From Haliscomenobacter hydrossis DSM 1100 (lineage in GTDB: Bacteria; Bacteroidota; Bacteroidia; Chitinophagales; Saprospiraceae), in the NCBI RefSeq assembly GCF_000212735.1, contig NC_015510.1, positions 7,131,001 to 7,195,000 of the forward strand: a DNA stretch of 64,000 nucleotides. Direction: 5' to 3'. The position numbers and the translations under genes are program-made. How positions within the stretch are numbered: the stretch's first letter is position 1; every line of letters begins with the position of its first letter. Shown one piece after another: positions 23,745 to 35,127 of the stretch. The notes below the pieces were generated by a model that had not been told where the DNA came from, did no database searches, and saw nothing but the letters and a program-made list of their open reading frames with translations.

Positions 23745-23827
23745 TTTCCGGAAACAAACCGGGCTCCTCGGCTCACTTCGACTTCGCTCAGTGAACGGCT
23801 CGGCGACTGGTTTGTTTCCGAAATCAA
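23741..23827. repeat. palindrome containing the stop codons of two convergent genes; GAGCGAAGTCG core
   Basis: 23741-23760 pairs with 23809-23827 over 19 positions with a single-base bulge. Both the plus-strand stop (23742-23744) and the minus-strand stop (23824-23826) lie in the arms. The core, read on the minus strand, contains TCACTGAGCGAAGTCG, shared with 63291-63308 (TCACCGAGCGAAGTCG). Confidence 0.8.
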
Positions 23828-25482
23828 TGTTGCTTCACTATACTCAAGGCTTTGCTATTTCCTTTGGCGCTCACGACCTGTACCCAATATTGCCCACGGG
23901 GCAACTCAAGACCTACCTGGATATTGCCATCTCCTGCTTTCATGGTGTGGCGCTCTACGATACGTCCAAAAAGATCGTAAACCCGTAACTCAGCCGTTTG
24001 AGCTTTCTTCCGCCAACTGTATTCCAAACGCAAGGTTTGAGTAAAGGGGTTCGGACTGGCTTTCAGGGCAACTGGAAGTTCAACAACATCCTTTAATCCG
24101 GTAATAAAACCATCGGGGCGCAACTTGACATCCAACAGGGTAACTTTTCCATTTTCCAGGGTCACTGACGAGGTATCCGGGAAATAACCCTCCTTGTAAA
24201 ATACGACCTGGTAAACACCACTTTGGGCCAAGCCTGTAGCGTAATTTCCTGATGTTTTGGAAAACTCTGAATTGATTTGTGGAGCTAATATCTGGACTTT
24301 TACCTCGCCAATTGGTTTGTTATCATTCGCATCGGTAATCAATCCTTCCAAAAAGCAGGCCTTTTGATGCGTCGGTTTTAACACCCAGAGTCCGGTTTGC
24401 ATATCAGAAGCGATGAGGATTCCACTTGGAAAATATGGAAAAATTGAGCTAACACCATTGATGCCACTGTACTCCTCAAGGTAGGTATCGTAACTACCTA
24501 CTTCGACCAAATTAGTGGGGTGGCTGGCGTCGATGATTTTTACTCCATCCGTAAAAAAAGCGGTCTTTAAAAAACCTTTGTCGTAGTGGAGGTGATGAGG
24601 GATTACGCCAGTTCCACGAGTTGCAGCAGGGGTGAAAAAATCTAAGCGCTCGATCTTGTTCAGGTTGCTTACCTTGTAAGCGTCAATATTGGCATTGGGA
24701 ACTTCATCGCAAGTAAACAAATATTTTCCATCATCGGAAAGCCAACAGCTGTGTGCATATTTTGAGGAAGTTGGAATCGTATTGAGCAAAATTGGGGCAG
24801 TCTTGTTTTTAACATCAATAATACTCACCTTACCTTCAAATATGTCTGAGTTCCATAGGGTATCGCCACGTGTGAAAACATCGTTGGTGTACCCTGAACG
24901 TATAGCACCCAAATAGCGGGGTGATTCAGGATCGGGATTAAGGTCGTACATCACCACTGCCCCATTGTTTACGTTGCACCCACACAAGTATAAAACTCCT
25001 TTTTTGTCGATCCATGAGGTAAAGCAACGAACAATAACATCAGGAACGGAGTCAATTTCCACTGGTAGTTTGACGTAATTCCAGGTAATCCGGTCTGGGG
25101 CGTGTTGCATGTTGATGATGAGTATGCCTTCATTACCACTTCCAAGCGTAGCATAGATATAGTTCTTCCATGTTTTCATTTCTATCCATGTACTTGATGC
25201 TTGTATCAGGGTGATTGCTTTGGGTTTGCGAGGATCCTCCAGTGAATAAATGGCAACCCCTTTGTCGGTACCGATAATTGCGTACTCTTTTCCGGTAGTA
25301 TCTATGTATCCATAGATGGAACTATATCGCCCTCTGGTGTATTCATCAACATTCGCCAGTAGTTCAATATTAAAATTGGGTTGTTGACTTTGAGCCCTCA
25401 TCAAATTAATGCCGATAAAGTAAACAATCAGGTATAGCGAAATTGCACCTAGGGCGGAATTGAGCAGCGATTTGTTTTTCAT
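23824..25482 (-). CDS. Choice-of-anchor B family secreted protein with T9SS tail (copy 2)
   Basis: A 552-residue secreted protein. The hydrophobic N-terminus (LLNSALGAISLYLIVYFIGI) is a signal peptide or anchor. The main part has LVIVD-type propeller repeats of the choice-of-anchor B family (GVAIYSLEDPRKPKAITLI, GVKIIDASHPTNLVEVGSYD). A carboxypeptidase-regulatory-like domain follows (about 385-455, EGLITDANDNKPIGEVKVQI), then a T9SS type A sorting domain (ASPNPFTQTLRLEY, LPRGQYWVQVVS). It is a close tandem paralogue of the next upstream gene (same domains, same order, long shared stretches), so a recent duplication is likely. Function unknown; probably a surface protein. Confidence 0.82.
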   Translation of the reverse strand: MKNKSLLNSALGAISLYLIVYFIGINLMRAQSQQPNFNIELLANVDEYTRGRYSSIYGYIDTTGKEYAIIGTDKGVAIYSLEDPRKPKAITLIQASSTWIEMKTWKNYIYATLGSGNEGILIINMQHAPDRITWNYVKLPVEIDSVPDVIVRCFTSWIDKKGVLYLCGCNVNNGAVVMYDLNPDPESPRYLGAIRSGYTNDVFTRGDTLWNSDIFEGKVSIIDVKNKTAPILLNTIPTSSKYAHSCWLSDDGKYLFTCDEVPNANIDAYKVSNLNKIERLDFFTPAATRGTGVIPHHLHYDKGFLKTAFFTDGVKIIDASHPTNLVEVGSYDTYLEEYSGINGVSSIFPYFPSGILIASDMQTGLWVLKPTHQKACFLEGLITDANDNKPIGEVKVQILAPQINSEFSKTSGNYATGLAQSGVYQVVFYKEGYFPDTSSVTLENGKVTLLDVKLRPDGFITGLKDVVELPVALKASPNPFTQTLRLEYSWRKKAQTAELRVYDLFGRIVERHTMKAGDGNIQVGLELPRGQYWVQVVSAKGNSKALSIVKQH

Positions 25483-25643: not shown

Positions 25644-27308
25644 TCAATTTTTTACAATCGGAGCGGCTCTGCTACTACCGGTTACGGAGATGACTTGTAC
25701 CCAATATTGCCCACGGGGCAACTCAAGGCCCAACTGGATATTGCCATCTCCTGATGTCAAGGTATGGCGTTCCATCAAACGTCCCAAAAGATCATAAACC
25801 CGGAGCTCTCCCGCTTGGGCTTGTCCCTGCCACTTATATTCCAAACGCAAGCTTTGAGTAAAAGGGTTTGGACTGGCCTTAAGGGTAAGTGGAAGCACAA
25901 CCACATCCTTCAACCCCGTGGTAAGGCTGTCTGGACGCAATTTGACATTTAAAACGGTGACTTTGCCATTTTCCAATGTGGCGGATAAGGTATCGGGCTG
26001 ATAGCCTTCCTTGTAAAATGCGACGCGGTAAACGCCACTTTGAGCCAACCCCGTGGCATAATTACCTGAAGCTTTGGAGGATTCCTGGTTGATCTGTGAA
26101 GCTAATATCTCGATTTCCACATCACCAACTGGGTTATTGTTGTTGGCGTCAGTAATGATTCCCTCTAAAAAACAGGCCTTTTGATAAGTAGGCCGAAAAA
26201 CCCATAGTCCAGACTGAATATCAGAAGCAATGAGCAAGCCACTGGGAAAATAAGGGTAAATCCCCCAAACCCCGTTGAAACCACTATCGGGTACAAGAAA
26301 GGTATCGTAACTCCCCACTTCAACCAGGTTTGTGGGTCGACTAGCATCGATAATTTTTACCCCATCAGTGTAATAAGCCGTAGGCAAAAAACCCTTGTAA
26401 TAGTGGGTGTTGTGTGGAACGACACCACTACCACGGGTAGCCGGAGCGGTAAAAACATCCAGCAATTCAACGTTGTTCAGGTCACTCACCGAATAGGCGT
26501 CAATACTGGCATTGGAGCGTTCATCAGTGGTGAATAGGTATTTTCCATCATCCGAAGGCCAGCTATTGTGGGTAAAACGCGAGGTAGTGGTAATGGAGTT
26601 GAGGATGATGGGATTTTTTTTATCAGCAACATCTACGATGGTTACATTACCATCATAGATGTTTGAACTCCAAACGGTATCTCCCCTGGCGTAGTTGTCG
26701 TGAGAATAACCCGTTTTTAGCGCGCCAAGATAACGTGGAGATTCCGGGTTGGGCTTGAGGTCGTACATCACCACCGCACCTCGATTGACATTACAGCCCG
26801 AAAGGTACATGATGCCGTTTTCGTCGATCCAAATGGTATGGCATTTTTCAATCAAACCGGGATTGAGCGGGTCAACCGGCGCCTGGGGTTTGAGGTAGTT
26901 CCAGGTTATTTTTTCGGGTGCCTCTTTCATGTTGATGATCAACAGGCCGTCGGGAGCATTGTCGATGGTGACATAAACATAGTCTTTCCATGATTTCATT
27001 TCCCGCCAGATGCTTCGAGTACCGCCAATAAAGGCTACTTTTTTGGGCTTCGCTGGGTCAACCAATGAGTAGATGGCTGTACCAATCCGAGTTCCCAAAA
27101 TGGCGTATTCGCGGCCCTGGCTATCCACATGTCCCCATATGGCGCTGTATAAGTTTTGGGGGTACTCATTGACGTTGGCCAATAACTCCAGATTGAAGTT
27201 GGGCTGTTGGGATTGGGTAAATCCGCATGGTTTCAACCAAAAAATAAACCCAATTAAAAGGAAATACCGGATGGTAAATGTGTTGAGCGGGTGCTTCATT
27301 ATGGTCAT
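25644..27308 (-). CDS. Choice-of-anchor B family secreted protein with T9SS tail (copy 1)
   Basis: A 554-residue paralogue of the neighbouring gene, with the same order of signal peptide, LVIVD propeller (TAIYSLVDPAKPKKVAFIGG, GVKIIDASRPTNLVEVGSYD), carboxypeptidase-regulatory-like domain and T9SS sorting domain (ASPNPFTQSLRLEYKW, LPRGQYWVQVIS). The ATG at 27308 overlaps the stop of the YigZ gene as ATGA, which suggests coupled translation; an alternative ATG at 27299 would remove only three residues. The 161 bases between the two copies hold no clear element. Both copies keep intact sorting tails, so both are probably exported and functional. Confidence 0.82.
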   Translation of the reverse strand: MTIMKHPLNTFTIRYFLLIGFIFWLKPCGFTQSQQPNFNLELLANVNEYPQNLYSAIWGHVDSQGREYAILGTRIGTAIYSLVDPAKPKKVAFIGGTRSIWREMKSWKDYVYVTIDNAPDGLLIINMKEAPEKITWNYLKPQAPVDPLNPGLIEKCHTIWIDENGIMYLSGCNVNRGAVVMYDLKPNPESPRYLGALKTGYSHDNYARGDTVWSSNIYDGNVTIVDVADKKNPIILNSITTTSRFTHNSWPSDDGKYLFTTDERSNASIDAYSVSDLNNVELLDVFTAPATRGSGVVPHNTHYYKGFLPTAYYTDGVKIIDASRPTNLVEVGSYDTFLVPDSGFNGVWGIYPYFPSGLLIASDIQSGLWVFRPTYQKACFLEGIITDANNNNPVGDVEIEILASQINQESSKASGNYATGLAQSGVYRVAFYKEGYQPDTLSATLENGKVTVLNVKLRPDSLTTGLKDVVVLPLTLKASPNPFTQSLRLEYKWQGQAQAGELRVYDLLGRLMERHTLTSGDGNIQLGLELPRGQYWVQVISVTGSSRAAPIVKN

Positions 27309-30250: not shown

Positions 30251-30352
30251 GGGCATCCCTGCGTGGTTGCTCCTGCCGCATCATGCAGGGGCAACCACGT
30301 AGGGCAACCACACAACCACAGGGCAACCACATAGGGTTGCCCCTACGGGCGT
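30251..30352. repeat. GGGCAACCAC repeat cluster with hairpin at the end of the TIR-TPR-SDR gene
   Basis: The word GGGCAACCAC occurs in tandem (30288-30330), with complementary copies GTGGTTGC near 30262 and GGTTGCCCCTAC near 30334. A hairpin forms between 30258-30274 and 30283-30299. The stop codon of the minus-strand fusion gene (30343-30345) and its last residues lie inside the repeat. Confidence 0.75.
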
Positions 30353-33198
30353 CCCGACCGATCAATCAACGTCGCACTCGCTTGCTGTGTCCCATATATC
30401 ACCACATCCTGAATATTGACGTGGGAAGGTTGGGTCGCCATATAAAAAATGGTATTGGCCACATCTGTAGACGTCAGCGGTTGAAAGTCGTTGTAAATTT
30501 TTGCACGTTCCGCATCGCCATCAAAGCGCACCAGCGCGAACTCGGTTTCTTCCACGTGTCCGGGCGCAATCTGGCTTACCCGGATGTTGTATTTGTACAA
30601 ATCCATCCGCATGGCCCGGGTCAGCATATCTACTGCGGCTTTGCTGGCACAATACACATTCCCCATGGGGTAGGGTTCTTTACCCGCAATCGAGCCCACG
30701 TTGATGATTTGCCCACTGTGTTGAGCCACCATGATTGGGCTGACGCAGCGGGTGAGGTAAAGCAAACCTTTGAGGTTGGTATCGATCATTTCTTCCCAAT
30801 GCTCCAGGGACCCTTCCTGAATTTCGGATAGCCCTTTGGCTTTGCCTGCGTTGTTGAGCAACAAATCGATGCTGCGCCATTCTTCCGACAATCCATTGAT
30901 GGCTGCGGATACACTGGCGTAATCGCGTACATCGAATACCAAACCGAGTACATCCGTCCCCGCTTCAACCAATTCCTGGCGTACTGCTTCCAACCTATCT
31001 TCACGGCGGCCAGTAATGATCAATCTCCAGCCGGCCTGGGCGAATACTCTGGCGGTAGCCAACCCAATTCCCGAGGTAGCCCCGGTGATCAAAGCCGTTT
31101 TAGGTGGCGCTGTTTCCACCGGTTCTTCCACTACTGTTTCTGCTTGGGCCGCCAATTCCTGCTCAATTTGTGCGGCTTTGGCCCGCAATAGTTCCTCCAG
31201 CCGCATGATGTTTTGCTTCAGGGCTTCAATGGTATCGTGTTCGCTGGAGAGCAAAGGAGAAAGGGTCGGAATGACCAACTCTTCGGCAACGACGGCAGGG
31301 ATGTCTTCGACCGGAGCTTCTTCAATGGGTACTTCCTCAACTGGAGCTTCCTCAACGGGTACTTCCTCCACTGGGATGTCAATCACCGGCGTTTCTTCAA
31401 CCGGAATCTCGACAATCGGAACTTCTTCCACCACGGGTTCCACAACCGGCTCTATGCTCAATCCCCGGAATGCGATTTCGTTTTCGGGGGTTTGCAACTC
31501 GGGGTTATTGGCGATGGCGGCCTCATAATATTGCAGTGCTTTGGCTGCATCTCCGGCGGTATGATAAATCAAGGCCAGGTCGTAATTGGCAAAGGGATGT
31601 TTGGACTGAATGGCCAGGGTTTGCAAAAAGTACTCCTCGGCTTTTTCGGTTTTGCCCATTACATCGGCCAAAATGGAGGCATACTGGTAGTGTGCATCGG
31701 CGTTGCCCGGATTGCGTTTGGCGGCTTTTTTGAAACATTTGGCGGCGTATTCCACTTCTTCCGGGAAGTTGGCTTGCAACACAGTACCCAAGCGGTAAAA
31801 AACATCCGTGAAGTCATCATTGATTTCCACCAGCCGTTCATAGTGTTTGCGTGCCGCATTAAAATCACCCTGGTGTTCGGCCAGTTCGCCCAACAGGAAA
31901 AAAGCCGCTTCATGGTCGGGATCAATTTCCGTGGCGAGGGCCAGTTGTTCGAGTGCCCCGTTGAGGTCGCGGGTATTTTGAGCCAAAATCAAGCCATAAA
32001 AATAGTGCAACTCTGCACTACCTGGATAGGTTTTGATGGCTTGTTTCATAAAAGTGATGCCACTTTCCACTTGGCCAGAAGCGACCAATCCACGGGCCTG
32101 TTGAATCAGTTCGGTGACTTTGTCATCGGGTTCATCCTCTTCTTCATCGTCGTCAGAGAGCGGTATGGCTTCCTCGTTGCTTGTTTCAGGAGCATCTTGA
32201 GCCTCTTCCTCTTCCAGCGATTCCTCGCTGTTGAGGGTATCGGTTGTATCGGCAAGGGTTGAAGCTAGATCTTCAGCAACAGCATCCAGGGCAGGAATTT
32301 CCAAGGGGACTTCCTCTTCCAACAAAGTTGCATGTTCAGAAATAACCACACCCAAGTCTTCCAGGTTTTCGGCCAATTCTTCACCACTCCATTCCTGTGA
32401 TTCAGCGGCAACTTCAACGGGCACTGTTTCTTCAACCGGTGCCATGGGTTCTTCAGGTGTTACTACTTCTACAGGCGGTTGGTACATTTCCGCCGTTGCG
32501 GTTTCTTCGACTACGGGTTCAGGAGATTCCCTTGATTCAATCACAGCAGGAGCTTCCCCGATATTGAATGACAACTGAGGTGCTTTTGCCTGTAGGGTTG
32601 CCCATTCCGATGGATCCTCTACAAAGTCAAAGAAGGCCTTGAGGTGATTGTCTATAAAATCGGAGAATTGGTAGTACTTGATGTTGCGCAATACCCGCAA
32701 AAACTCACTGGCTTCGCTGGATACCTGACGGAGGATGCGCAGGCTTTCGTTTAAGTCTTCCCGCTTATCCGTCTCACTTTCGGCTTCAAACTTGCGTTTT
32801 TGGCTGCGCAAATCGAGGTATTTGTTCTGCCAATAGTTGATGTACGGAATGATGTCTCCGATTCTTTCAAATTTGGTGGGGGTGTTTACCCATTCACCTG
32901 TAGCGTCATCTTTGGAACGGCCATCGATGACCACAGGCAAAATGTTTCCACTTTTTTGCTGTACCAGTTGCAAAGCACGGTTCATACAATGTTCAGAGCG
33001 CAAAAAATTATCGCTGATGAGCAATAGAATGGTGCCATCAAAATCGCGCAGCTGTTCGGCCAGTGTAGCCTCATCTACATTTTTTTTGCAATAACAATGC
33101 ACAACACTGTAGCTGGTCTGACTCAAGGCATTATACAGTACTTCTGCGACTGGTAAGTTGTCGATGCAGTAGGCGAGGGCTATCTTTTTTGTTGCCAT
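30343..33198 (-). CDS. TIR-TPR-SDR fusion protein
   Basis: A 951-residue cytoplasmic protein with three modules. Residues 1-140 form a TIR-like domain (KKIALAYCIDN, FDGTILLLISDNFLRSEHCM). At the place of the usual catalytic Glu of SxWCxxE the sequence has Arg74 (H70-C71-M-N-R74), so NADase activity is doubtful. An acidic linker leads to TPR repeats (about 359-585; YAAKCFKKAAKRNPGNADAH), then a Val-Glu-Pro repeat stretch (about 580-640) and a coiled coil. Residues 700-951 are a complete short-chain dehydrogenase with TGATSGIG (705-712), NNAG (782-785), N808, S836, Y849 and K853. The ATG at 33198 was chosen because a longer frame runs into the upstream gene. It is last in an operon after a TlpA-like lipoprotein and an unknown gene. 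Function unknown. Confidence 0.85.
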   Translation of the reverse strand: MATKKIALAYCIDNLPVAEVLYNALSQTSYSVVHCYCKKNVDEATLAEQLRDFDGTILLLISDNFLRSEHCMNRALQLVQQKSGNILPVVIDGRSKDDATGEWVNTPTKFERIGDIIPYINYWQNKYLDLRSQKRKFEAESETDKREDLNESLRILRQVSSEASEFLRVLRNIKYYQFSDFIDNHLKAFFDFVEDPSEWATLQAKAPQLSFNIGEAPAVIESRESPEPVVEETATAEMYQPPVEVVTPEEPMAPVEETVPVEVAAESQEWSGEELAENLEDLGVVISEHATLLEEEVPLEIPALDAVAEDLASTLADTTDTLNSEESLEEEEAQDAPETSNEEAIPLSDDDEEEDEPDDKVTELIQQARGLVASGQVESGITFMKQAIKTYPGSAELHYFYGLILAQNTRDLNGALEQLALATEIDPDHEAAFFLLGELAEHQGDFNAARKHYERLVEINDDFTDVFYRLGTVLQANFPEEVEYAAKCFKKAAKRNPGNADAHYQYASILADVMGKTEKAEEYFLQTLAIQSKHPFANYDLALIYHTAGDAAKALQYYEAAIANNPELQTPENEIAFRGLSIEPVVEPVVEEVPIVEIPVEETPVIDIPVEEVPVEEAPVEEVPIEEAPVEDIPAVVAEELVIPTLSPLLSSEHDTIEALKQNIMRLEELLRAKAAQIEQELAAQAETVVEEPVETAPPKTALITGATSGIGLATARVFAQAGWRLIITGRREDRLEAVRQELVEAGTDVLGLVFDVRDYASVSAAINGLSEEWRSIDLLLNNAGKAKGLSEIQEGSLEHWEEMIDTNLKGLLYLTRCVSPIMVAQHSGQIINVGSIAGKEPYPMGNVYCASKAAVDMLTRAMRMDLYKYNIRVSQIAPGHVEETEFALVRFDGDAERAKIYNDFQPLTSTDVANTIFYMATQPSHVNIQDVVIYGTQQASATLIDRSGRP

Positions 33199-33241: not shown

Positions 33242-34591
33242 TCATTGTTGTTGTACGGATTTATTTGATAAAAGTTGCAATATGAAACGGTTAAATTCTG
33301 CTTTAAATTGCTTGTGTTCGCTGGTTGCTGGCCCCGAAAACCCGGTGTGGATGCGTTGAACCCGATCATTTTTGTCGATGATGATCATGGTGGGGAAAGC
33401 CAATACCGCATTGAGCATGGGCAATACTTGAGATGCCTCGGCTTTGTTGGAGTTGCCCGCCAGCAGCAGCGCGTAGTCCATCTTGAAATTGTCGCGGTAC
33501 CGGCGCAAAGCGTCCATTGCTTTGTCCTTTTCTTTGTGGCGTTCAAATGCCAGAGCGATAATTTCTAACTCTTGCTCGGGGTGCTGTTTGAGGTAATCCA
33601 CCAAAAACTCGGTTTCGTCCCGGCAATTGGGACACCAGGTGCCCATAATTTGGATGATTTTGACCTTGTTTTGGTAACGGACATCTTTCAAACTGACCAT
33701 TTTTCCTTCGGTATTTTCAAAAGAAAAATCAATCTTGTTGTAACCAGGTTTGAGGTAAGTCAGGCTATGGGCATCGGCCAGTTTTGCTTTGGGGTTAAAT
33801 TTGGCCTCCCAGGAGGTTTGATAATGATTTCCAGAACGGAAAGAGCCAATCATGCTGCTGTCTGTGGGGTTGATTTTTCCTTCAAACAAGTAAGCATGGC
33901 TACCATCGAAGCAAGAGAGATAGAGTTTATTAGCCTGCACGGTCCCCTCCAAATAGCGGTAATCGCCTGTTTCGGTCAAAAATGTCCCGGTCAAATAATT
34001 GCCTTCTTGTTTGAATTCACCGATGCCTTTGTATTCATCTGGAGTTCCTATTTCGAAAGTCGTTTCCCACCTCCCACTGACATTCATTACAGGTTCCTTG
34101 CGCAAGTTGGAAAAACGGTAATCGCGGCCATGGCGGGCCAGGAAGGGGATGCGGTAGTTTTCCCTGTTGCGTACCACCCATTCTCCGTCGATGGCGTTTT
34201 CCAAAAAATAACCCTTGATGTAGGAGTCAAATACGGGAAAATCGATCATAATGGTATCCTTGGCCTGGCTTTTATCACGCCCGATTTTGATGTCATCTAC
34301 CACGATGCGTTCATCCCCATTGATGATCTCGATGTAAAAACTGTCGGCGGTGACGTAAATGACCTCAAAAGTGAAAGGCAATTCGCCTTGGCTCACTTCT
34401 TCAAACTTGAGGTTGACTTTATCGGGCAGGGGTTCTCCCCGCGGGTTAGGGTTGACGGGGTTGTTGTCGAGTTTGAGCACCGCCCGCCATTTGCCAGGGG
34501 GTAAACCCGTATAGGGGTTTTCTGCGGAAAAAAAACAAGACTGCAAACCCAAAACCAGGACAACAAACCCCAAAATATAGTTGATTTTCAT
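33242..34591 (-). CDS. TlpA-like thioredoxin-fold lipoprotein
   Basis: A 449-residue exported protein with a lipoprotein signal (VVLVLGLQSC, Cys19). The first 270 residues are beta-rich (PGKWRAVLKL, GRWETTFEIG) and have no assigned function. The C-terminal 160 residues are a thioredoxin fold of the TlpA type with an intact CxxC in IMGTWCPNCRDE and the cis-proline strand LAFPTMIIIDK. Such proteins reduce disulfides or mature cytochromes in the periplasm; the exact target is open. It starts 2 bases after the stop of the small upstream gene and ends 43 bases before the TIR-TPR-SDR start, so the three probably form one operon. Confidence 0.87.
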   Translation of the reverse strand: MKINYILGFVVLVLGLQSCFFSAENPYTGLPPGKWRAVLKLDNNPVNPNPRGEPLPDKVNLKFEEVSQGELPFTFEVIYVTADSFYIEIINGDERIVVDDIKIGRDKSQAKDTIMIDFPVFDSYIKGYFLENAIDGEWVVRNRENYRIPFLARHGRDYRFSNLRKEPVMNVSGRWETTFEIGTPDEYKGIGEFKQEGNYLTGTFLTETGDYRYLEGTVQANKLYLSCFDGSHAYLFEGKINPTDSSMIGSFRSGNHYQTSWEAKFNPKAKLADAHSLTYLKPGYNKIDFSFENTEGKMVSLKDVRYQNKVKIIQIMGTWCPNCRDETEFLVDYLKQHPEQELEIIALAFERHKEKDKAMDALRRYRDNFKMDYALLLAGNSNKAEASQVLPMLNAVLAFPTMIIIDKNDRVQRIHTGFSGPATSEHKQFKAEFNRFILQLLSNKSVQQQ

Positions 34592-34593
34592 GC

Positions 34594-35127
34594 TTAACTT
34601 TTTTCACCAGTGAAAGAATGCTCTTTATACTTAAAAAGCACATTGAAAGTTGTCAAACTGCCGTAAATTTTGGTAATGTACTGCTGTAGGTTGACTTTTT
34701 CAATATCACTAAGCAAGGTATTGCTGTTGATGCGTTGTTCTAGTACACGCAGGCGGTCGCGGGTCATGACAATTTTGTGGAAAAAATCTTCGATGGGCAT
34801 TTCTTTCGGTTTGAGACTTTTATCTGCGGGCTGTAGAATCAGATTGCCACCTTCCCACCGGTCGCCTAAGGCCACTTCCTCCATACCATCCAGGTGAGTG
34901 CGCAAGATTTTGATCAGCGATTTTTCAGCCGCACTAAAGGTAACCGGGTCTTCTGCGGGAATGGCCTCCACAATTTCCATTTTCTCGTAATCTTTACCTA
35001 CTGTTTTGATGCCATAAATGGTAAAACAGATATCGTAAGCAATAGCATGCAGGCGAATCACCACTCCATCCCCAAAAGCAGGGTGTTTTACACGGGAACC
35101 AATGCCAAGTAGTGTGTTTTCATTCAT
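34594..35127 (-). CDS. Conserved hypothetical protein with tudor-like N-terminus
   Basis: A 177-residue soluble protein that I cannot assign to a named family. The N-terminus IGSRVKHPAFGDGVVIRL has the RVxHPxFGxGxV pattern of the small SH3/tudor-like domains at the ends of PcrA/UvrD helicases, which bind RNA polymerase or nucleic acid. The remainder is helical (EKSLIKILRTHLDGMEE, MTRDRLRVLEQRINS), with no catalytic motif. It is the first gene of the operon leading to the TlpA-like lipoprotein and the TIR-TPR-SDR fusion, and only 2 bases separate it from the next start. A regulatory or adaptor role is possible. Confidence 0.6.
   Translation of the reverse strand: MNENTLLGIGSRVKHPAFGDGVVIRLHAIAYDICFTIYGIKTVGKDYEKMEIVEAIPAEDPVTFSAAEKSLIKILRTHLDGMEEVALGDRWEGGNLILQPADKSLKPKEMPIEDFFHKIVMTRDRLRVLEQRINSNTLLSDIEKVNLQQYITKIYGSLTTFNVLFKYKEHSFTGEKS

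What the first reader, a model, noticed from the sequence alone, without database searches (positions are those of the whole stretch)
30343..33198. TIR-TPR-SDR fusion with a degenerate TIR active site and an intact dehydrogenase
A single 951-residue protein joins an N-terminal TIR-like domain, an acidic linker, TPR repeats, a Val-Glu-Pro repeat stretch and a complete short-chain dehydrogenase. Seen: the TIR catalytic Glu position (SxWCxxE) reads Arg74, while the SDR keeps TGATSGIG, NNAG and the N-S-Y-K tetrad (N808, S836, Y849, K853). Known: bacterial TIR domains often cleave NAD or bind NAD-derived signals, and SDRs use NAD(P). Inference: the TIR part may be a protein-assembly or nucleotide-binding module that gates an NAD(P)-dependent enzyme through the TPR. 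I do not know of a described system with this order of domains.
Basis: partly seen in the sequence, partly recalled or inferred. Interest (0 to 1): 0.75.

Follow-up and report, generated by a model that had tools for sequence, protein, structure and literature searches.

The report
Dehydrogenase carrying a retired immune domain
One bacterial family has placed an immune-type signalling domain that has lost its cutting residue, plus a protein-binding arm, in front of an ordinary housekeeping reductase, and has kept the combination in many genomes, which suggests an immune part was recruited to hold or steer a metabolic enzyme.

Summary
The gene is on the minus strand (ATG 33198, stop 30343; 951 aa): TIR-type domain plus helical extension (1-205), disordered acidic tether, TPR (357-578), second tether, intact short-chain dehydrogenase (697-951). 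It is not an assembly artefact: 87 of 150 same-family genomes (window's included) carry this TIR. In 75 TIR and SDR share one open frame; in 7 the TIR frame is cut by a contig end; 5 differ (2 split into two genes, 1 with an in-frame stop, 1 without SDR, 1 with a decayed SDR). Elsewhere in the family the same SDR stands alone at the same place, behind the same TlpA-like gene (37 of 40 loci; 69 of 85 fused loci). So a TIR-TPR arm sits in frame between TlpA and a YdfG-like NADP(H) reductase. The TIR Glu is present in 3 of 86 family members but in 13 of 15 related TIRs of other proteins: Arg74 reflects a lineage-wide loss. The SDR catalytic Tyr is kept in 77 of 78, the other tetrad residues in 78 of 78. 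Most likely: a domesticated, non-catalytic docking arm on a serine/3-hydroxy-acid-type reductase. Catalytic death is inferred from sequence; the partner is unknown.

The parts
32584..33198 (-). TIR-type domain with helical extension, residues 1-205 (Arg74 at the catalytic Glu position)
32131..32583 (-). acidic disordered tether, about residues 206-356 (residues 200-363: 31% D/E, 2% K/R; pLDDT under 50 at 216-276 and 282-355)
31465..32130 (-). TPR superhelix, residues 357-578
31258..31464 (-). Val-Glu-Pro-rich tether, about residues 579-647
31138..31257 (-). single 40-residue helix 648-687; a similar 'ALKxNIxxLEELL' motif is seen, by eye, in part of the family only
30346..31110 (-). YdfG-like short-chain dehydrogenase domain, residues 697-951, intact N-S-Y-K tetrad and Arg731-Arg732
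33242..34591 (-). TlpA-like redoxin gene, next upstream; the common neighbour of both fused and stand-alone SDR
34594..35127 (-). 177-aa gene with no Pfam or NCBIfam match at E<=0.001, next upstream of the TlpA-like gene (a relative was found in 43 of 85 fused and 29 of 40 stand-alone loci, many of which are short)

Best explanation
A cytosolic NADP(H)-dependent reductase/dehydrogenase of the YdfG type (serine, 3-hydroxy acids, small oxo-acids) that carries, on long disordered acidic tethers, an N-terminal arm made of a TIR domain that no longer cleaves NAD and a TPR superhelix. The arm came from an immune-type TIR lineage, entered in frame between the TlpA-like gene and the SDR gene once in the ancestry of this family, lost the catalytic Glu, and was kept as a binding arm: the conserved face (ends of strands 1, 3 and 4, helix aE with the YxNYWQDxYLxLR motif, and the extension helices) and the TPR groove bind a partner and so place or concentrate the enzyme. 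If the SDR is a tetramer like its relatives (recalled), one enzyme would show four arms. Shown from sequence: architecture, conservation, loss of Glu, locus, intact SDR. Inferred: no NADase activity, docking role, substrate, partner, single origin with later losses.
For: TIR and SDR in one frame in 75 of the 87 family genomes that have this TIR, one copy per genome. Glu at column 74: 3 of 86 in the family, 13 of 15 in related TIRs of other proteins. Family TIRs are one side of a branch against 10 other TIRs (SH-aLRT 100, quick tree). The TIR is not decaying: between the window and L074 dN is 0.081 in the TIR, 0.087 in the SDR, 0.044 in the TPR and 0.455 in the first tether (dS not computable for the TIR). 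TIR, TPR and SDR distances go together (r 0.53-0.66, 0 of 999 permutations as high, 78 rows). Same place with and without the arm: TlpA-like gene upstream on the same strand in 69 of 85 fused and 37 of 40 stand-alone loci. SDR Asn, Ser and Lys kept in 78 of 78 fused rows, Tyr in 77; all four in 40 of 40 stand-alone rows. Nearest solved structures 2nwq, E. coli YdfG-type 3asu/3asv, sulfoacetaldehyde reductase 6ixj, yeast YMR226C 3rku (TM to target 0.89-0.95). In four loci of one Lewinella-type clade the fused gene lies beside a hydroxy-amino-acid dehydratase.
Against: No partner is known. The BB loop is not conserved, against a classical TIR assembly. The arm is dispensable: 45 of 150 family genomes have a bare SDR frame of under 300 aa instead (counted; 40 loci examined). 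In G102 the arm stands without any SDR found and in G045 the SDR is decayed, so its role may not be about this enzyme. Three family members keep a Glu (L109, L116, L121), so NADase activity may persist in some. L153 has no TPR match and in L096 only sub-threshold ones. Conserved residues near the ends of the strands could also mean a kept nucleotide pocket rather than a docking face.
Confidence: 0.5

Rival explanations
1. Ligand-gated enzyme: the TIR pocket still binds an NAD-type molecule (NADP, ADP-ribose, a cyclic ADPR) without cleaving it, and binding changes SDR activity through the TPR arm.
For: N14, S62, D63, N64, G93 and T108, which by topology lie near the ends of the strands, are kept in 72 to 83 of 86 rows (D92 in 47) although Glu74 is gone; the SDR is an NADP(H)-type enzyme.
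Against: The S-D-x-x-L-x-S-x-x-C motif is shared with the other TIRs, so its conservation may be structural. Two disordered tethers of very different aligned length between homologues (15-319 and 20-342 residues) make direct allosteric coupling unlikely. Bare SDR orthologues exist.
Confidence: 0.17
2. Immune sensor or decoy: the TIR-TPR arm still takes part in anti-phage defence (partner of active TIRs), and the SDR is the guarded or effector part.
For: Related TIRs elsewhere sit in what look like NLR-type, Roco/STAND-type and GTPase proteins (read by eye) and in a TIR-TPR protein with Glu (L234).
Against: One copy per genome, co-inherited with the SDR, shared locus with a bare enzyme, only one weak PADLOC match (PrimPol, E 0.0023, to the TPR part), no defence family among the five neighbours scanned with Pfam.
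Confidence: 0.1
3. The TIR is still an NAD(P)-cleaving enzyme that uses another acidic residue, so the protein makes and uses nicotinamide nucleotides.
For: Glu at column 74 in 3 of 86 rows and at column 73 in 9 of 86.
Against: No Glu is conserved near column 74; the window has N73-R74-A75; the Asp that most related TIRs carry before the BB loop is gone too.
Confidence: 0.05
4. A neutral gene fusion: read-through joined a TIR-TPR gene to the SDR and the arm has no role for the enzyme.
For: The fused label needs 11 changes on the SDR tree, at least 5 forced by starred branches; two genomes with separate overlapping frames (L098, L099) and one with an in-frame stop between TIR and TPR-SDR (L237).
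Against: In the one close pair tested dN in TIR and TPR is no higher than in the SDR; one-frame fusion seen in 75 genomes.
Confidence: 0.13

Closest known systems
YdfG / NADP-dependent 3-hydroxy acid (serine) dehydrogenases (E. coli 3asu/3asv; yeast YMR226C 3rku; sulfoacetaldehyde reductase 6ixj)
   Same: SDR domain aligns nearly end to end, same tetrad and Arg-Arg after the second strand; best NCBIfam model is YdfG (234 bits); TM to target 0.89-0.95
   Different: Those solved chains are 248-287 residues long; the score is below the YdfG equivalog cut-off (411), so substrate is not assigned; here about 690 residues precede the enzyme
TIR domains of plant/animal receptors and bacterial TIR NADases
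   Same: Fold; family profile hits MyD88 TIR
   Different: Catalytic Glu absent in 83 of 86; BB loop unconserved; C-terminal helical extension with a YxNYW motif
Other Bacteroidota TIR proteins with the same helical extension (L155, L156, L157, L158, L161, L163, L164, L167, L229/L234, L230/L233)
   Same: Align over most of the 196-position profile including the extension; L234 is TIR-TPR
   Different: Keep Glu, 10 of 10; attached to other parts, no SDR seen, though most were read only in part
MyD88/MAL-type scaffold TIRs
   Same: Works-like: a TIR used for protein contacts, not catalysis (PMC8635717, passages)
   Different: Their assemblies run through the BB loop, which is not conserved here

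Membership tests
TIR domain superfamily | TIR fold and profile similarity | tested here: met
   the window's own Pfam score is below the cut-off and no Foldseek hit reaches E<=0.001
TIR NADases | catalytic Glu in SxxCxxE | tested here: not met
   Arg74; 3 of 86 family rows have Glu
TIR NADases | NAD(P) cleavage in vitro | not testable with these tools
   needs protein
BB-loop TIR assemblies (MyD88/SARM1 type) | conserved BB loop | tested here: not met
   mean top-residue fraction 0.22 against 0.53-0.69 in five other segments; role of the loop from PMC8635717 passages
Classical SDR | TGxxxGIG, NNAG, N-S-Y-K tetrad | tested here: met
   NNAG, Asn, Ser, Lys 78 of 78 and Tyr 77 of 78 fused rows; the three Gly of TGxxxGIG invariant in 78 rows; fold
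YdfG 3-hydroxy acid dehydrogenases | equivalog-level score | tested here: not met
   234 of 411 bits needed, though it is the best model
YdfG 3-hydroxy acid dehydrogenases | activity on serine, 3-hydroxypropionate and the like with NADP | not testable with these tools
   Arg-Arg after strand 2 fits NADP (recalled rule)
Known anti-phage systems (PADLOC) | match to a system protein | tested here: not met
   one match, PrimPol E 0.0023, no stretch passing on its own, to the TPR part

The most novel reading that the evidence does not exclude
An immune-type TIR-TPR sensor was domesticated by a whole bacterial family into the regulatory arm of a housekeeping NADP(H) reductase: the TIR stopped cutting nicotinamide nucleotides, kept the pocket as a reader of an NAD-derived signal or of active TIR proteins, and through it couples immune signalling to redox metabolism.
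Probability: 0.15. Interest if true: 0.85.

Novelty: new variant of a known kind. Interest (0 to 1): 0.58.

Why it matters
It looks like an immune-type TIR that lost its catalytic residue and was kept as part of a metabolic enzyme, with natural controls at one locus: fused, split, bare-enzyme and arm-only genomes. That makes 'what does a dead bacterial TIR do' directly testable.

Tried and rejected
Two genes joined by a sequencing error: rejected by recurrence in 75 genomes. Defence-system membership: one weak PADLOC match only. A family-wide coiled coil before the SDR: the motif is present, by eye, in part of the family only. Promoters and terminators: 5 and 9 found where shuffles give means of 5.7 and 7.8. 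Literature; none of the papers listed was about this architecture; passages read of PMC8635717, PMC8195603 and PMC7159879, the others seen only as listings with the start of the abstract. dS was saturated or not computable for several segments, so only dN is used. The weak hits in G047 and G145 turned out to be another TIR family and were dropped from the count of 88; G115, missed by the sequence search, was added. L088, L115, L122, L126 (cut), L098, L099 (split), L118 and L084 were left out of the full-length alignment A2. The degenerate L084 SDR and three paralogous outgroups were left out of the SDR tree. Five of 15 other TIRs were left out of the TIR tree as short, partial or doubtfully aligned. 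Of the 45 family genomes with a bare SDR frame (counted), 40 loci were fetched and examined; G053, G089, G094, G099 and G142 were not.

Full report
WHAT IS THERE. The ORF is on the minus strand, ATG 33198 to stop 30343, 951 aa. The model of the whole protein (78-row alignment; mean pLDDT 81.4, pTM 0.41) shows ordered blocks at about 1-205 (TIR plus helices), 357-578 (TPR), one helix 648-687 and 697-947 (SDR), with stretches of pLDDT under 50 at 216-276, 282-355, 581-647, 649-654 and 688-695. The low pTM and the absence of PAE output mean that nothing can be said about how the blocks sit relative to each other.

IS IT REAL. The first 199 residues were sought in 150 genomes of the same family, the window's own included; 88 matched at E<=0.001. 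A profile search of the 62 others found 4 with matches: G115, a fused family member, and G049, G101 and G129, which are other TIRs. Two of the 88 (G047, G145) also proved to be another TIR family. That leaves 87 of 150. Of these 87: 75 show TIR and SDR in one open frame (73 rows of alignment A2 that come from these genomes; plus G115 and G036; in one of the 73, L108, the frame runs to the contig end just after the SDR); in 7 the TIR frame runs off a contig end (G138, G022, G123, G132, G008, G010, G110); 2 have TIR-TPR and SDR as separate, slightly overlapping frames (G048, G148: L098, L099); in G059 (L237) one in-frame stop separates a TIR frame of 405 aa from a TPR-SDR frame of 420 aa, which may be real or an assembly error; in G102 (L118) no SDR is found; in G045 (L084) the SDR has lost Tyr, Lys and Asn of the tetrad by alignment. 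Wider: in a class sample 8 of 295 genomes matched at E<=1e-5, 2 of the family and 6 others; in a phylum sample, which overlaps it, 8 of 296 matched, 3 of the family and 5 others. No SDR fusion was seen in the others, but most of those loci were read only in part. The ten same-order, other-family genomes listed had no match.

THE LOCUS. In the window the order on the minus strand is a 177-aa gene (34594-35127), a TlpA-like redoxin gene (33242-34591; AhpC-TSA 3.6e-11), then the fused gene. The TlpA-like gene lies upstream on the same strand, or overlaps, in 69 of 85 fused loci and in 37 of 40 stand-alone SDR loci (distances are between stop-to-stop frames; 68 of the 69 are within about 420 bases, L075 at 1.1 kb). 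So the TIR-TPR part sits between two genes that are neighbours without it. The 16 fused loci without the TlpA-like gene include four (L043, L046, L047, L131) in which the next gene upstream is a PLP dehydratase whose best NCBIfam models are beta-hydroxyaspartate dehydratase and threo-3-hydroxyaspartate ammonia-lyase, all below their cut-offs; they belong to one five-row clade of the SDR tree, whose fifth member, L135, has neither gene in its locus by BLAST, so this counts as one event. In 25 genomes of other families 22 have the SDR orthologue at E<=1e-40 as a bare 253-300 aa frame; the TlpA-like gene was found in none of the 20 loci held, of which 18 have 1.3-1.5 kb upstream of the SDR frame, L222 0.8 kb and L224 0.1 kb.

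EVOLUTION. Family genomes with an SDR orthologue at E<=1e-50: 127 of 150, two of them with a second copy. On the SDR tree of 123 rows the fused label needs 11 changes, at least 5 forced by starred branches (bootstrap not settled; 37 of 120 inner branches open). The family TIRs are one side of a branch against ten other TIRs (SH-aLRT 100; quick method; long branches meet). TIR, TPR and SDR distances correlate (r 0.53-0.66; 0 of 999 permutations; 78 rows). The simplest reading, which is an inference, is one gain and several losses of the arm with vertical inheritance; the trees themselves cannot tell gain from loss.

THE TIR. At the catalytic column the family has G 21, N 16, R 14, Q 9, K 5, H 5, D 5, S 4, E 3 and four singletons (86 rows); fifteen related TIRs of other proteins (four of them from genomes of the same family) have E in 13, including all ten that cover the helical extension. 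In the two without (L165, L232) a Glu lies one or two places on in the printed alignment. The BB loop columns 36-46 have a mean top-residue fraction of 0.22 against 0.53-0.69 for strand 1, strand 3-helix C, strand 4, helix aE and the second extension helix. W123 is invariant; L66, T108, Y119 and R131 are at 90% or more. Thus catalysis by the standard mechanism is unlikely and a conserved face remains. In the pair window/L074 the TIR changes as slowly as the SDR (dN 0.081 and 0.087; TPR 0.044; first tether 0.455; second 0.300).

THE SDR. Tetrad residues N, S and K in 78 of 78 fused rows and Y in 77; all four in 40 of 40 stand-alone rows. Nearest solved structures by sequence: 2nwq, 3asu, 6ixj, 3rku; by fold 6ixj, 3rku, 3asv, 2nwq, TM to target 0.89-0.94. 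Relatives reduce or oxidise serine and sulfoacetaldehyde (entry titles) and 3-hydroxy acids (NCBIfam title) with NADP(H). NCBIfam's YdfG model is best but below its cut-off.

MECHANISM. Committed reading: a non-catalytic TIR plus TPR arm on flexible acidic tethers that docks an NADP(H) reductase to a partner. Shown from sequence: domains, locus, loss of Glu, conservation. Inferred: absence of NADase activity, docking, substrate class, tetramer. Against it: the arm is found without a working SDR in G102 and G045, many relatives do without the arm, and no partner is known.

ORIGIN OF THE WINDOW. The window lies in an 8.77-Mb genome of 4 contigs; the size recalls Haliscomenobacter hydrossis, but that name comes from memory, not from a call. 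The link to Saprospiraceae/Lewinellaceae rests on the record titles.

Noticed in passing
window 23824-25482 and 25644-27308, minus strand: Two tandem paralogous genes of 552 and 554 aa, 64% identical over 546 aligned columns.
   Followed up: partly
L241 (2174 on, +) and L242 (1933 on, +): A TIR protein that keeps the Glu, with what looks by eye like a transmembrane segment, lies near a gene that looks like a patatin-type phospholipase in two family genomes (G047, G145); a possible defence pair.
   Followed up: no
L118 (G102): TIR-TPR protein of the same family with no SDR domain, and no SDR orthologue found in the genome at E<=1e-50.
   Followed up: partly
L084 (G045): TIR-TPR with a decayed SDR: SGATEAIG, NYAG; tetrad Asn, Tyr and Lys not kept by alignment.
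   Followed up: partly
L237 (G059), about 3487: One in-frame stop between the TIR frame and the TPR-SDR frame of a family member; real or an assembly error, not decided.
   Followed up: partly
L153 (G005): TIR-tether-SDR of 632 aa with no TPR match in Pfam at E<=0.01.
   Followed up: partly
L043, L046, L047, L131: In a Lewinella-type clade the fused gene lies behind a hydroxy-amino-acid dehydratase instead of the TlpA-like gene.
   Followed up: yes
L233 and L156/L157: The same TIR-plus-helices subfamily in what looks by eye like an NLR-type protein with beta-propeller repeats, and fused to what looks like a dynamin-like GTPase.
   Followed up: no
L109, L116, L121: The three family members that keep Glu at the catalytic column; L109 and L116 are sisters on the SDR tree and may still be active.
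   Followed up: no
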